Shown piece after piece: positions 13,542 through 16,872 of a stretch of 39,879 nucleotides of DNA. The notes beneath the pieces are model-generated. The model searched no databases, had not been told where the DNA came from, and saw nothing but the letters and a program-made list of their open reading frames with translations. Numbering within the stretch: the stretch's first letter is position 1; the number at the start of each line of letters is the position of its first letter. Where the stretch lies: the NCBI RefSeq assembly GCF_018613155.1, contig NZ_JAGGQU010000006.1:1-39879 (forward strand), in the 5' to 3' direction. Source of the stretch: Bacillus sp. ISL-55 (GTDB lineage Bacteria > Bacillota > Bacilli > Bacillales > Cytobacillaceae). Both the position numbers and the translations under genes were made by a program.

Positions 13542-15002
13542 TTATGATACTTTATCCTTCTCATGGTTGAAGGAGTATTCTTCTTCCCAATACTCAGCAT
13601 TTTTGATGCCAAGTTTTTTTGAGTTGAAGACTGGATCAAGTCCTTGCTTTTTCTGTTCCTCATAATCTTTTAAAGCAATTAATGCTGGTTTCGCGAGCAG
13701 GACAATGGCGATCAGGTTGAGCCATACCATCAATCCCAGACCAGCATCTCCAAGCGCCCATGCGAGTGACGCTTCTTTCACAGCACCGTAGAAAGTTGCT
13801 CCAAGGATGACGACTTTCAGGACAAACATCGGAACCTTACCATTTCTCCCTCTGAGAAGATAAGCGATATTCGTTTCAGCCATATAATAGTATGCCATGA
13901 TTGTTGTGAAAGCGAAGAAGAATAGTGCTACAGCAACGAATTCTGCGCCGAACCCAGGAAGAACCGCATCTACTGCAGCCTGTGTATATCCTGGACCTGC
14001 TTCCACTCCCTTAAGGTTTTCAACAATGAATGCCCCGTCAGCACCAACCGTATTGAACATTCCTGTGAACAGGATCATGAATGCTGTTGCGGAACAAACA
14101 AATAGTGTGTCAATGTATACAGAGAATGCCTGGACCAAACCTTGTTTTGCCGGGTGTGAAACCTCTGCAGCAGCAGCTGCGTGTGGGCCAGTACCCTGTC
14201 CTGCTTCATTAGAGTAGATACCTCGTTTTACACCCCATGCAATCGCGCTGCCAAGAATACCGCCGAACATTGAATCAGCACCGAAAGCGCTTTTGAAAAT
14301 CAAGGCGAAAACGGCAGGAACTTCTGAAATATTCATTCCGATAATGACTAGGGCTACAAGGATGTATCCGACAGCCATAAATGGAACTGTGTATTGCGCG
14401 ACGGTCGCGATCCTTTTTACGCCTCCAAAAATGATTAAGGCCAAAAGTGCGATTACGACAAAACCTGTCACTGACTTGCTAACGCCAAAAGCATTCTCAA
14501 GACCAAGCGCAATCGAATTGGACTGAATTCCTGGCATTAACAGAGACATTGCCAGCAATGCAGCTATGGCAAACACAATCGCGAACCATTTGATTCCAAG
14601 ACCTTTTTCGATGTAGTAAGCAGGACCCCCTCGGTAGAGACCATCTTGCTTTACTTTGTAAATCTGAGCAAGTGTTGATTCTACGAACGCGCTTCCTGCC
14701 CCGATAAACGCAATTGTCCACATCCAGAAAACCGCACCAGGACCACCCATGGCGATAGCCGTGGCAGTACCTGCGATATTACCTGTTCCGACCCGGCCGG
14801 ATAAAGCGATAGATAAGGCCTGAAAAGATGATACACCAGCATCGGAACTTCTTCCTGTGAACATAAGTTTAACCATGTCCTTCAGGAGTCTAACTTGCAG
14901 AAAACGTGTCAGGATTGAGAAAAGCAAGCCGATTCCCAGAATGATGTAAATGACCGGGTTGCTCCACAAAATCCCATTGAGCCAAGAAACAAAAGCTTCC
15001 AA
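13542..15002 (-). CDS. alsT: Sodium:alanine/glycine (AGCS family) symporter (486 aa)
   Basis: This integral membrane protein of the amino acid carrier (AGCS/AlsT) family imports alanine, glycine or glutamine with sodium. Family hallmarks include FQALSIALSGRVGTGNIAGTATAIAMGGPGAVFWMW (about 59-94), GGPAYYIEKGLG, and GVKRGIYSNEAGQGTGPHAAAAA in the middle. About eleven hydrophobic segments are visible, and the charged C-terminal tail (after about 450) is cytoplasmic. The start is TTG, six bases behind GGGGG; no better start is available. It is a single gene with a strong terminator. No glycine riboswitch or TnrA box was found in the leader. The exact amino acid cannot be told from the sequence. 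Confidence 0.85.
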   Translation of the reverse strand: MEAFVSWLNGILWSNPVIYIILGIGLLFSILTRFLQVRLLKDMVKLMFTGRSSDAGVSSFQALSIALSGRVGTGNIAGTATAIAMGGPGAVFWMWTIAFIGAGSAFVESTLAQIYKVKQDGLYRGGPAYYIEKGLGIKWFAIVFAIAALLAMSLLMPGIQSNSIALGLENAFGVSKSVTGFVVIALLALIIFGGVKRIATVAQYTVPFMAVGYILVALVIIGMNISEVPAVFALIFKSAFGADSMFGGILGSAIAWGVKRGIYSNEAGQGTGPHAAAAAEVSHPAKQGLVQAFSVYIDTLFVCSATAFMILFTGMFNTVGADGAFIVENLKGVEAGPGYTQAAVDAVLPGFGAEFVAVALFFFAFTTIMAYYYMAETNIAYLLRGRNGKVPMFVLKVVILGATFYGAVKEASLAWALGDAGLGLMVWLNLIAIVLLAKPALIALKDYEEQKKQGLDPVFNSKKLGIKNAEYWEEEYSFNHEKDKVS

Positions 15003-15202
15003 ATGAATCCCCCTTTACAGATTTGATTTCTTTCTATTTCGAATTATAAGATAATTTAACTTAAAGGACAATCAAAAAGTGATATTTAACAGCAAATAAT
15101 TTATATAGCTGTATATAAACAGGGGTTCGATTATAGAATTTGATGGTTTCGTACGAGAGGTTTATATGAGTTTGTTTCGATTCCCTTTGCTTTCATTTAA
15201 AC
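15003..15202. other. Gene-free leader of the symporter gene
   Basis: This stretch holds the symporter ribosome site and presumably its promoter. It is A/T-rich. No coding frame, riboswitch or clear operator was seen. The tandem repeat array begins at its far end. Confidence 0.5.
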
Positions 15203-15790
15203 ATGTCAGAAGCCGCTCCAGGTTCGGACAGGATTCAGCTGATTTCCTCTAAAGCTGTCCGAAGTTGCTCCATGTTCGGACAGGTTTTCGCTGATTTGAT
15301 TCAAAGCTGTCTGAAGTAGTCCCATGTTCGGACAGGTTTCAGTTGATCTCCTCTAAAGCTGTCTGAAGTAGCCTGTGTTCGGACAGGTTTCAGCTGATTT
15401 CCTCTAAAGCTGTCCGAAGTAGCCCCAGGTTCGGACAGGTTTTCGCTGGTTGTCTTCAAAGCTGTCTGAAGTTGCCCCGTGTTCGGACAGGTTTTCGCTG
15501 ATTTGATTCAAAGCTGTCTGAAGTTGCACCATGTTCGGACAGGTTTTTGCTGGTTGCTTTCAAAGCTGTCCGAAGTATCACCGGGTTCGGACAGGTTTCA
15601 GCTGATCTCCTCTAAAGCTGTCTGAAGTAGCCCTGTGTTCGGACAGGTTTCAGCTGATTTCCTCTAAAGCTGTCCGAAGTAGCACCATGTTCGGACAGGT
15701 TTTCGCTGATTTCCTCTAAAGCTGTCAAAAGTTACACCAAGTTAGGACAGCTATTCGCTGGTTTCCTCCAAACCAATCAAAAGCTATCCA
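15203..15790. repeat. Tandem array of about eleven 52-bp units with internal inverted repeats
   Basis: TTCGGACAG recurs at 15223, 15275, 15327, 15378, 15430, 15482, 15534, 15586, 15638 and 15690, with a variant (TTAGGACAG) at 15742, so the period is 52 bp (once 51). Each unit is a left arm CTGTCCGAA or CTGTCTGAA, an 11-base spacer, the right arm TTCGGACAG, and a 23-base linker such as GTTTCAGCTGATTTCCTCT plus AAAG. The first and last units are degenerate, and a decayed half unit follows. 52 is not a multiple of three and no open frame crosses the array, so it is not coding. It lies between the symporter promoter region and the terminator of the next gene. The function is unknown. Confidence 0.9.
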
Positions 15791-15796
15791 TAAACG

Positions 15797-15824
15797 AAAA
15801 AAGCGAGAGACCACTGTCTCCCGC
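15797..15824 (-). terminator. Terminator of the DDAH-like gene
   Basis: On the minus strand GCGGGAGAC pairs with GTCTCTCGC (one mismatch) around a four-base loop and is followed by TTTTTT, ten bases after the stop. Confidence 0.8.
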
Positions 15825-15833
15825 ATTGTTTTC

Positions 15834-16700
15834 TTAATGTCCACTTTTCTCTCGTAAAATCGGAAGTGTGCAGCATCGGAATGAACCTCCAGATTTTATT
15901 ATTTCTGTTATATCCACTTCAATTACTTCGAATCCCTTATTTCTTAGTTGTTCATTAACTCCTTTATTCACAGGCAAGCTGAGGATTCTTTTGTTGCCGA
16001 TACAGAGCACATTCGTTCCGAGTGTGAATTGTTCTTCCTCGCTCACATCAATCAAAACATATTTAGAACTGAACAGATTAATATCATCCTCTGTCAAAGC
16101 TGGTCGATAGATTAATGCGACTTCCGGGGAAACGACATTGAAGACGCAGTCAAGGTGAAGATACTCTGCCTTAAAAGGAATGGCACGAACTTTAAACTGT
16201 GGAAGTAATCCTTGTAAATGATCAACTGCTTGCTGGTTGGTACGGTTGCTTAATCCAACGTACACTGTATCCTGGTCGATGACAACATCTCCACCCTCAA
16301 TCTGGTCACCTAACAAGTTATAGTAGGAGATTTCCTCATCCTCGAGCCACTGTTTCAGGACATCCTCCTCTCCCTTACGTACTTCGCTGGCCATTTCCGC
16401 AACAAAAATTGTTTGGCCGAGTGTAAACCCTATATCCCTTGTGAAAACTTGCTCAGGGTATTTCTTATGGTATGGAAGAAGGATAACTTCTACCCCATAA
16501 TTTTTCAAAGTATTCACGAATTTATTGTGCTGTTCCAAGGCAACTTCTATATGTATGCCCTCATCCTTGAAATGTTTCTGAGTTTCATTAATTACATCAC
16601 GTATTGTCATATACTGTGGGCTGCAAAGAATGACTTTCTTAAGTACGTCATATTCATTTATGACATACCCTCTATTTTCGGGATGCATATTCTGTTCCAT
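15834..16700 (-). CDS. ykgA: DDAH / arginine deiminase family hydrolase, YkgA-like (288 aa)
   Basis: This is a guanidino-group-modifying enzyme of the dimethylarginine dimethylaminohydrolase/amidinotransferase superfamily. Motifs in order are FTRDIGF (Arg88-Asp89), EGGDVV (Glu135-Asp138), LHLDCVFN (His182, Asp184) and the catalytic SGGSFRCCTLP, where Cys276 aligns with the nucleophile of relatives and a second cysteine follows. Such enzymes hydrolyse arginine, methylarginines or other guanidines to citrulline or a ureido product; the substrate here is not settled. ATG at 16700 is seven bases from AAGGAGGA, whereas the in-frame ATG at 16706 is one base away. It is a single gene with a terminator, resembling B. 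subtilis YkgA. Confidence 0.85.
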   Translation of the reverse strand: MEQNMHPENRGYVINEYDVLKKVILCSPQYMTIRDVINETQKHFKDEGIHIEVALEQHNKFVNTLKNYGVEVILLPYHKKYPEQVFTRDIGFTLGQTIFVAEMASEVRKGEEDVLKQWLEDEEISYYNLLGDQIEGGDVVIDQDTVYVGLSNRTNQQAVDHLQGLLPQFKVRAIPFKAEYLHLDCVFNVVSPEVALIYRPALTEDDINLFSSKYVLIDVSEEEQFTLGTNVLCIGNKRILSLPVNKGVNEQLRNKGFEVIEVDITEIIKSGGSFRCCTLPILREKSGH

Positions 16701-16872
16701 CCTCATTCCTCCTTATATACAAATCACTTTAGGTTTTCCGGATTTTACTTTAATCATAACTTCACATTGAAAAAATCCTGTCAGATATCCTGACGAACCT
16801 GCTGACTTTTTATCAAGAATTCTTTACGCTTAAGAAAAATTTACAACTCTTTCAGGAAATGAGGAGATGAAG

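What the first reader, a model, noticed from the sequence alone, without database searches (positions are those of the whole stretch)
15203..15790. Eleven-unit tandem array of a 52-bp dyad repeat in a gene-free gap
Each unit carries 9-bp arms CTGTCYGAA and TTCGGACAG around an 11-base spacer, and the right arm can also pair with the next left arm across the 23-base linker. The array could therefore fold into two alternative series of hairpins, or present eleven evenly spaced (five helical turns) protein-binding dyads. It is noncoding and does not match a named repeat family that I know. Even spacing of near-integral helical turns would suit a nucleoid protein or a phased DNA structure.
Basis: seen in the sequence. 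Interest (0 to 1): 0.75.

Follow-up and report, generated by a model that had tools for sequence, protein, structure and literature searches.

The report
Satellite DNA of five-helical-turn units

Summary
In detail: 11 head-to-tail units (15203-15773, period 52) lie between the terminator of a DDAH/arginine-deiminase-like gene and a promoter-like site of a Na/alanine symporter gene. The class is not new: 52-nt tandem repeats of constant length, variable sequence and unknown function are published for Bacillus (PMC8161180), including a family with these arms. Found here: (1) one genome carries several arm sequences at the same period; (2) many families share a frame, TGTC-N19-GACA plus a 25-nt linker; (3) A/T content oscillates five times per unit (10.4 bp) in the focal family, a second family and 16 of 27 published consensus units; (4) indels per substitution are about 35 times rarer than in one flank; (5) arrays of one family follow replication (60 of 68 on the leading strand); (6) divergent gaps are under-represented; (7) arrays recur at this locus across species with turnover. 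RAYT transposases, SpoIIIE octamers and obligate terminators fit poorly. Best reading: phased DNA modules of five helical turns, bound or wrapped by a DNA-bending or topology protein (gyrase is the best guess, unproven). Main rival: replication-slippage satellites without function.

The parts
15203..15773 (.). Array of eleven 52-bp units (one 51-bp step); first and last units degenerate
   Evidence: TRF 15204-15772, period 52, 11.0 copies; arm positions; sequence
15255..15283 (.). Example dyad (unit 2): arms of 9 around a spacer of 11; its inner 27 nt are TGTC-N19-GACA
   Evidence: sequence; arm positions; frame
15223..15698 (.). Ten exact right arms TTCGGACAG, starting at 15223, 15275, 15327, 15378, 15430, 15482, 15534, 15586, 15638, 15690
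15255..15678 (.). Nine exact left arms CTGTCYGAA, starting at 15255, 15307, 15359, 15410, 15462, 15514, 15566, 15618, 15670
15803..15824 (-). Intrinsic terminator of the gene at 15834-16706; the array lies beyond it
   Evidence: 9-pair stem, loop of 4, then TTTTTT; hairpin-T sequences seen at this place in the orthologues printed in gene direction
15043..15071 (-). Promoter-like site (TTGTCC-17-TATAAT, 10 of 12) before the symporter gene; the array ends about 130 bp upstream of it
   Evidence: consensus match only (3 such sites found in the stretch, 1.4 expected)
15834..16706 (-). Flanking gene, DDAH/arginine-deiminase-like, 290 aa (its 3' end faces the array)
   Evidence: Pfam PF19420, PF02274; match in 21 of 21 genus genomes
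13542..15002 (-). Flanking gene, sodium:alanine symporter family, 486 aa (its 5' end faces the array)
   Evidence: Pfam PF01235

Best explanation
The array is a block of the 52-nt satellite class of Bacillaceae. Shown: the unit is a palindromic core plus a linker, in many families TGTC-N19-GACA plus 25 nt; five A/T-rich patches per unit are spaced about one helical turn apart in the focal family, a second family and most published ones; unit length is conserved far better than sequence; arrays sit in intergenic gaps, mostly with at least one gene ending towards them, and are under-represented in divergent gaps. Inferred: the array works as double-stranded DNA, as a ladder of equal faces every five turns on which a DNA-bending or wrapping protein loads side by side, serving DNA topology or nucleoid organisation between neighbouring transcription units. 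My best single guess for the protein is DNA gyrase, by analogy with its phased, degenerate motif and with E. coli BIME-2; HBsu or another architectural protein is nearly as likely. No binder has been shown.
For: Phasing at five cycles per unit: 138 arrays, W 2.47 against 1.17 +- 0.08 and WW 4.68 against 2.57 +- 0.18 with arms fixed and loop and linker columns shuffled, 100 shuffles; 32 of 42 consensus units from complete-genome loci that have the exact frame, W 3.51 against 1.88 +- 0.21 with only the linker shuffled; 27 published consensus units, mean W 2.94, next harmonic 1.48, five the top of the first 13 harmonics in 16 of 27; 9 family representatives from two 400-kb samples, 2.28 against 1.01 +- 0.33; 1843 intergenic 52-mers 1.28. 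Length: 61 of 1371 neighbouring pairs are not 52 bp, 0.0050 indels per substitution against 0.173 in one flank of 11 orthologues. Arms 0.046, loop plus linker 0.227 substitutions per site between neighbours. Frame: exact TGTC..GACA at spacing 19 in 13 of 28 sampled arrays and 5 of 27 published units, against 2 and 1 occurrences at all other spacings from 6 to 38. Position. Gyrase analogy: PMC6379681 reports phased 10-bp G/C variation in the gyrase motif, and cleavage sites enriched in BIME-2 and downstream of highly transcribed operons (abstract and passages).
Against: No binding, footprint or transcript data. Gyrase and HU have no known strand polarity (recalled), yet one family follows the leading strand. 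11 of 27 published units have no significant five-cycle signal, among them alkalitelluris_71, the published family with the same arms (W 0.76, p 0.48), nor do 3 of 9 sampled families (L219, L246, L234:16193). The 138 and 32 arrays share ancestry and are not independent tests. The general 27-nt span is not distinct in the published units (at least 7 of 8 outer pairs in 9 at span 27, 10 at 23, 10 at 45). Divergent gaps are not always avoided: 3 of 12 genus loci and 6 of 42 complete-genome arrays. Arrays are lost or reduced in some species at this locus. 52-nt arrays are reported as transcribed in B. coagulans (PMC8625621, parts 1 and 2 of 3 read).
Confidence: 0.4

Rival explanations
1. Function-free hairpin satellite: palindromic units are copied by slippage or template switching, mostly on the lagging-strand template, and persist wherever they harm neither terminator nor promoter.
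For: Orientation with replication: 34 of 37 (E<=1e-40), 60 of 68 (E<=1e-20) and 85 of 112 (all kept rows) arrays of one family have the query strand as leading strand in six complete genomes; 10 of 11 fetched exceptions in tandem gaps have flanking genes on the leading strand, so transcription does not explain them. Turnover at one orthologous locus. Location beyond the gene's terminator in the window, and in 23 of 63 gene ends elsewhere.
Against: Indels are about 35 times rarer per substitution than in the flank; arms are conserved; the TGTC-N19-GACA frame and five-cycle phasing recur in families of different sequence. Slippage alone does not fix a length or a phase.
Confidence: 0.28
2. RNA function: transcribed hairpin arrays acting as terminators, 3' UTR elements, sponges or small RNAs.
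For: Arms stay complementary across families; pair 8/20 is Watson-Crick in 171 of 171 array consensus units with two pair types, shuffled mean 0.77, though the second type (23) looks like mainly the CTATCGGACA family and so few events. On the strand opposite the purine-rich one some families are a hairpin followed by TTTT; the T-tail is longer on that side in 18 of 22 own-sample arrays. Transcripts of B. coagulans arrays are reported (PMC8625621).
Against: Hairpins are weak in several families (dG about 0 to -4), and the G001 array at this locus has poorly paired arms. In complete-genome loci the T-tail is longer on the lagging side in only 25 of 42 (loci half chosen as exceptions). 23 of 63 gene 3' ends facing an array have a terminator-like site before it, like 103 of 260 control ends, so arrays do not replace terminators. 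A ten-bp A/T phase has no evident role in RNA. No Rfam family. A homodimer site would also covary.
Confidence: 0.15
3. Binding sites of a small serine recombinase: inverted TGTCYRNTA-like half-sites (consensus recalled, not found in print here) spaced five turns as in Tn3-type res sites (recalled), read by the conserved SOS-operon recombinase YneB.
For: Half-sites TGTCYGAA, TGTCCGATA, TGTCCAATA. A Resolvase-domain ORF of 204-239 aa, taken as YneB-like from length and score, occurs in 20 of 21 genus genomes, the miss being G010, 66% complete. In the own genome it stands between ORFs that I recognise as yneA and ynzC, beside one like lexA (names recalled).
Against: B. subtilis also has yneB (recalled) but is listed as poor in tandem repeats (PMC8161180). 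HTH_7 is not detected in the own genome and 6 others of 21. Some families have other ends, such as GGGC..GCCC. A search for the consensus in print found none on resolvases among the 15 papers shown of 61.
Confidence: 0.07
4. Polarity signals for the DNA translocase SpoIIIE/FtsK.
For: Leading-strand orientation of one family; purine-rich on the same strand in 22 of 22 arrays of the own sample; GAGAAGGG with one mismatch 31 times against 14.5 +- 4.0 in shuffles.
Against: The B. subtilis octamer GAGAAGGG (recalled) has 0 exact copies in 7441 array bases (0.9 expected).
Confidence: 0.04

Closest known systems
52-nt tandem repeats of Bacillus (Subirana and Messeguer 2021, PMC8161180; whole text read)
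   Same: Period 51-53, noncoding, many loci and several families per genome. Family 71_52_7 of B. alkalitelluris, TGTCTGAAGTaGCCT...GTTCGGACAGcTTT, has the same arms; B. selenatarsenatis shares its repeats with boroniphilus and subterraneus. The authors note that short signals and their reverse often stand in one repeat, and they propose nucleoid proteins or small RNAs.
   Different: The paper reports no sequence conservation beyond species-specific signals and no obvious explanation for the length; here a shared TGTC-N19-GACA frame, five-cycle A/T phasing, replication-linked orientation of one family and a gap preference are found.
E. coli BIME-2/REP arrays
   Same: Repeated palindromes in intergenic gaps; gyrase cleavage sites are enriched in BIME-2 (PMC6379681, passages).
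   Different: Head-to-tail units of fixed 52 bp; the REP-associated transposase family does not track the arrays; the GTAG/CGTC tags of REPs (PMC3733652, start of abstract in listings) were not searched for.
Tn3-type res sites
   Same: Inverted TGTC-type half-sites and five-turn spacing (recalled; only one passage of PMC9943657 seen, which did not give them).
   Different: Eleven like units; no recombinase gene beside the array; the palindrome spans 27, an odd number.
Intrinsic terminators
   Same: Some families are a hairpin plus T-tract on one strand.
   Different: Tandem; beyond the gene's own terminator in the window; weak hairpins in several families.

Membership tests
52-nt tandem repeats of Bacillus (PMC8161180) | At least four head-to-tail repeats of 51-53 nt, at least 60% of equal length (+-1) | tested here: met
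   11 copies; steps of 52 with one of 51
52-nt tandem repeats of Bacillus (PMC8161180) | Noncoding, many loci and several families per genome, Firmicutes | tested here: met
   69 blastn matches in the own genome, merged by hand to 39 places; 22 arrays of 51-53 bp in a 400-kb own sample, 1 with focal arms; named hits are Bacillaceae apart from Sporosarcina globispora and one 'Chryseobacterium' label thought wrong (capped list)
52-nt tandem repeats of Bacillus (PMC8161180) | Consensus matches a listed family | tested here: met
   71_52_7 has arms TGTCTGAA..TTCGGACAG, spacing checked
REP/BIME with RAYT | REP-associated Y1 transposase in genomes with the element | tested here: not met
   G006 and G015 have focal matches but no PF01797 match; G008 has PF01797 matches but no focal match
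REP/BIME with RAYT | Gyrase binding (BIME-2) | not testable with these tools
   needs Topo-seq or ChIP
Intrinsic terminator | Stable hairpin followed by a T-tract, acting at gene ends | tested here: inconclusive
   pattern met in some families only; does not replace gene terminators; the scan found none inside the window array
Tn3-type res subsite | Cognate recombinase binds and recombines | not testable with these tools
   only half-site resemblance to a recalled consensus, plus a conserved recombinase of unknown target
SpoIIIE recognition sequence | Exact GAGAAGGG (recalled) enriched on the leading strand | tested here: not met
   0 exact in 7441 bases, 0.9 expected
CRISPR array | Repeats separated by unique spacers, with cas genes | tested here: not met
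   loop and linker are themselves repeated, 0.227 substitutions per site between neighbours; cas genes were not searched

The most novel reading that the evidence does not exclude
A shared five-turn DNA grammar (a palindromic core, commonly TGTC-N19-GACA, plus a 25-bp linker with helically phased A/T patches) defines one kind of chromosomal element across Bacillaceae, read by one conserved DNA-wrapping or DNA-bending protein that assembles on it like a ladder, with a direction set by replication: a repeated, nucleosome-like loading platform in bacterial intergenic gaps.
Probability: 0.2. Interest if true: 0.85.

Novelty: new member of a known kind. Interest (0 to 1): 0.58.

Why it matters
[quoted passage not shown] A unit of five helical turns with phased A/T patches would explain constant length with variable sequence, points to DNA rather than RNA, and gives simple predictions: half-turn insertions should destroy function and full-turn changes should not. 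If a gyrase-like or architectural protein binds, these genomes carry built-in tracks for mapping DNA topology or nucleoid structure in Gram-positive bacteria.

Tried and rejected
REP/RAYT system: PF01797 has no match in G006 and G015, which have arrays. Plasmid or phage cargo: no match in 72,556 plasmid or 50,697 phage records. Known RNA family: best two Rfam matches E 0.055 and 0.057, far below gathering scores (window 14900-16000). SpoIIIE octamer: 0 exact. Obligate terminator or 3' UTR function. G-U wobble as a sign of sense-strand RNA: left-T and right-A variants show no consistent orientation to flanking genes (read by eye, no statistic). Small resolvase with a detectable HTH_7: no match in 7 of 21 genomes. 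Transcription as the cause of array direction: in 4 gaps with both genes on the lagging strand, 3 arrays keep the purine-rich strand leading, but those 3 come from the 20 loci picked as regular; the unpicked count is. The focal family follows the rule less well: purine-rich on the locally dominant strand in 23 of 33, against 24 of 28 for the sampled arrays.

Weak points. Gene calls are my own codon-score ORF picks, not annotation; a called ORF overlapped 8 of the 152 arrays. Divergent gaps: 1 of 24 sampled arrays with both neighbours known, 1 of 30 own focal, 7 of 76 genome-contig loci, 3 of 12 other genus loci, 6 of 42 complete-genome arrays, against 71 of 337 array-free gaps; Fisher p 0.06, 0.015 and 0.015 for the first three, convergent enrichment 0.002 and 0.009 for the first two, not corrected for several tests and with one array in both of the first two sets. 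The samples of G000 and G014 are 400 kb each; those of G014 are mostly contig starts. My nine-family clustering is coarse and lumps different arms. The 13 sampled arrays with the frame are about five families by eye. Harmonics above 13 were not printed. The indel comparison uses one flank of one locus, and copying between units lowers both of its terms. The 138 and 171 'focal' arrays were taken with up to three arm mismatches, which lets in units of the CTATCGGACA family. The J. Bacteriol. 2020 paper of the same authors is not held, so what it says is unknown to me. Statements on what is in print rest on searches.

Full report
WHAT IS THERE. The window holds eleven head-to-tail 52-bp units at 15203-15773 (TRF 15204-15772, 11.0 copies). 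Ten exact right arms and nine exact left arms are 52 bp apart except for one 51-bp step; the end units are degenerate. The array overlaps no ORF of 80 aa or more. On one side lies the intrinsic terminator (15824-15803, minus strand) of a DDAH/arginine-deiminase-like gene, on the other a promoter-like site (15071-15043, minus strand) before a Na/alanine symporter gene. The array thus fills the space between the end of one transcription unit and the likely start of the next.

IT IS ONE OF MANY. blastn with the array gives 69 matches, some overlapping, in the own 4.52-Mb draft genome; I merged them by hand to 39 places. The exact dyad occurs 228 and 199 times on the two strands against 0 and 0 for the reversed control. 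Of 61 genomes searched (own, 20 of the genus, 16 of the family, 24 of the order), 24 have a match: 19 of 21 in the genus and 5 outside it. Their names are Neobacillus, Mesobacillus, Cytobacillus, Texcoconibacillus, Peribacillus, Halalkalibacter, Natronobacillus, Bacillus species, an uncultured Bacillaceae, Sporosarcina globispora, and one 'Chryseobacterium' with a contig of the same length as one of this genus. Plasmid and phage collections have none.

IT IS A KNOWN CLASS. Subirana and Messeguer (PMC8161180, whole text read) catalogued 52-nt tandem repeats in about 30% of the Bacillus species they studied, with constant length, variable sequence and unknown function; they noted that short signals and their reverse often share a repeat, and proposed nucleoid proteins or small RNAs. 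Their family 71_52_7 of B. alkalitelluris has the arms seen here. PMC8625621 (parts 1 and 2 of 3 read) reports transcripts in B. coagulans. I therefore file this array as a new member of a known kind.

SEVERAL ARM SEQUENCES IN ONE GENOME. In a 400-kb sample of the own genome (280 kb of contig 11, 120 kb of contig 69) TRF found 22 arrays of 51-53 bp, 1 of them with the focal arms; 400 kb of G014, which has no focal match, has 6. A protein reading only the focal arms cannot explain the class.

A SHARED FRAME. Exact TGTC and GACA stand 19 apart in 13 of 28 sampled arrays (about five families by eye); all other spacings from 6 to 38 together occur twice. In the 27 published consensus repeats of 50-54 nt the spacing of 19 occurs in 5 (7 with one mismatch), other exact spacings once. 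With TGTC-N19-GACA (27 nt) the linker is mostly 25 nt. Some families with other ends, such as GGGCACATA..TATGTGCCC and GGGCTCATAGAA..TTCTATAAGCCC, can be laid out on the same 27 nt. As a general rule the span of 27 is less sharp: at least 7 of 8 outer pairs in 16 of 27 sampled arrays at span 27 and 15 at span 41 (which is the same arms read across the linker), but in the published units 9 at 27, 10 at 23 and 10 at 45. Several published families (kochii, indicus, alcalophilus_11 and _41 among them) do not fit.

FIVE HELICAL TURNS. Fourier analysis of A/T content around the unit gives the strongest of the first 13 harmonics at five cycles, 10.4 bp. For 138 focal-type arrays W is 2.47 against 1.17 +- 0.08, and WW 4.68 against 2.57 +- 0.18, with arms fixed and the other columns shuffled. 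For 32 of 42 consensus units from complete genomes, those with the exact frame, W is 3.51 against 1.88 +- 0.21 (largest of 500 shuffles 2.44) with only the linker shuffled. For the 27 published units the mean W is 2.94 and the next harmonic 1.48; five is the top harmonic in 16, and 16 have p below 0.05 by letter shuffling; some of these families are related. 11 show no significant signal, among them the published family with these arms. For nine family representatives from the samples the mean is 2.28 against 1.01 +- 0.33, the highest of 2000 shuffles reaching the same value to two decimals; three of the nine show nothing. 1843 ordinary intergenic 52-mers give 1.28, slightly above their other harmonics. 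A phase of one helical turn is meaningful for duplex DNA; I see no reason for it in RNA.

LENGTH IS GUARDED. Among 1371 neighbouring unit pairs in 171 focal-type arrays, 61 are not 52 bp, while neighbours differ by 8.86 substitutions: 0.0050 indels per substitution. In the promoter-side flank of this locus in 11 orthologues (55 pairs) the figure is 0.173. Copying of neighbours inside an array lowers both numbers, so the ratio is a guide rather than a rate. Arms differ at 0.046 of sites, loop plus linker at 0.227. Inner arm pairs vary together across arrays (pair 8/20 Watson-Crick in 171 of 171, shuffled mean 0.77; pair 10/18 0.48 against 0.31; pairs 11/17 and 12/16 not above shuffles), which fits base pairing or symmetric reading by a dimer; the 23 second-type cells at pair 8/20 look like mainly one family.

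WHERE ARRAYS LIE. Unbiased sample: 14 tandem, 9 convergent, 1 divergent, 4 undetermined of 28; array-free gaps of 100 bp or more: 227, 39, 71. Own focal arrays: 20, 9, 1 and 6 undetermined of 36; other genus loci 7, 2, 3 of 12; genome-contig loci 46, 23, 7 and 28 undetermined of 104. Complete-genome arrays: 24, 12, 6 of 42. Divergent gaps are thus under-represented, not excluded. Median distance is 95 bp from a stop codon to an array and 153 bp from an array to a start codon. Of 63 gene 3' ends facing an array within 300 bp, 23 have a terminator-like site before it, like 103 of 260 control ends. Arrays do not stand in for terminators.

DIRECTION. Arrays are purine-rich on one strand: 22 of 22 in the own sample on the plus strand of two contigs rich in plus-strand genes, mean 0.64, against 0.52 in control tandem gaps; over both samples 24 of 28 on the locally dominant strand. 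In six complete genomes (dnaA located), arrays of the CTATCGGACA family have the query strand as leading strand in 34 of 37 (E<=1e-40), 60 of 68 (E<=1e-20) and 85 of 112 (all kept rows). Fetching 20 exceptions and 20 regular cases showed that flanking gene direction does not explain the exceptions (10 of 11 in tandem gaps have leading-strand genes) and that many of them have little purine bias. The focal family is less strict (23 of 33). The window array itself is mildly purine-rich on the minus strand, 0.545, the strand of both flanking genes.

EVOLUTION AT THIS LOCUS. The flanking gene is found in 21 of 21 genus genomes. In the 20 loci compared (G008, whose gene gives two split matches, was left out), three or more dyads stand at this place in 9 (G000, G018, G005, G019, G016, G013, G001, G020, G011), one or two in 4 (G007, G004, G017, G009), and none by my criterion in 7, of which G006 and G003 show recognisable remnants; for G002, G014, G015 and G010 the sequence itself was not read in gene direction. 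Unit sequences differ between species while the period stays; the G001 arms are poorly paired. Arrays therefore persist at a place, are homogenised within each species and are sometimes lost.

MECHANISM. The facts to explain together are fixed length with free sequence, helical phasing, a recurrent frame, few divergent gaps, and replication-linked direction in one family. A DNA platform for a bending or wrapping protein explains the first four. Gyrase is the best-documented candidate type: its E. coli motif has phased 10-bp G/C variation, and its cleavage sites are enriched in BIME-2 and downstream of highly transcribed operons (PMC6379681, abstract and passages). It does not explain direction. 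A slippage satellite explains direction, turnover and location but not length, phase and frame. Both could be true: arrays may arise by slippage and be kept when they phase well. Recombinase sites (YneB) remain an open guess.

VERDICT. Real, widespread and already described as a class; the present comparison supplies a testable reason for its length. Steps shown: anatomy, frame, phasing, length constraint, position, orientation of one family. Steps inferred: that a protein binds, which one, and what it does.

Noticed in passing
L228:9706-9817, L237:6523-6655 (own genome); L250:16167-16280, L249:16286-16397 (G014): A second satellite class of 20-21 bp (two helical turns) sits in the same genomes, matching the 20-21-nt class of PMC8161180; its phasing was not tested.
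   Followed up: no
L229:14050-14694: Small serine recombinase (214 aa, PF00239) in what I read as a lexA / yneA / yneB / ynzC order; a similar-sized Resolvase-domain ORF is present in 20 of 21 genus genomes, target site unknown.
   Followed up: partly
L231:18673-19161 and relatives in G009, G011, G015, G016, G018, G019: A second family, TGTCCGATAG..CTATCGGACA, shares the TGTC-N19-GACA frame; in its strongly purine-biased arrays it looks like hairpin plus T-tract on the lagging-direction strand.
   Followed up: yes
L213, L214 (G008:C9:24911-25749): The orthologue of the flanking deiminase-like gene in G008 gives two overlapping matches in different reading frames, as if broken; G008 also has no focal repeat match.
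   Followed up: no
L051, L059, L118 (JAGGQZ010000003.1): 'Chryseobacterium sp. ISL-80' has a contig of the same length (470,914) as G013:C30 of this genus, so the public name is probably wrong.
   Followed up: partly
window:15204-15772: A 156-bp (three-unit) period scores higher than 52 bp, and 104- and 156-bp periods recur in other arrays: higher-order units, perhaps steps of recent expansion.
   Followed up: no
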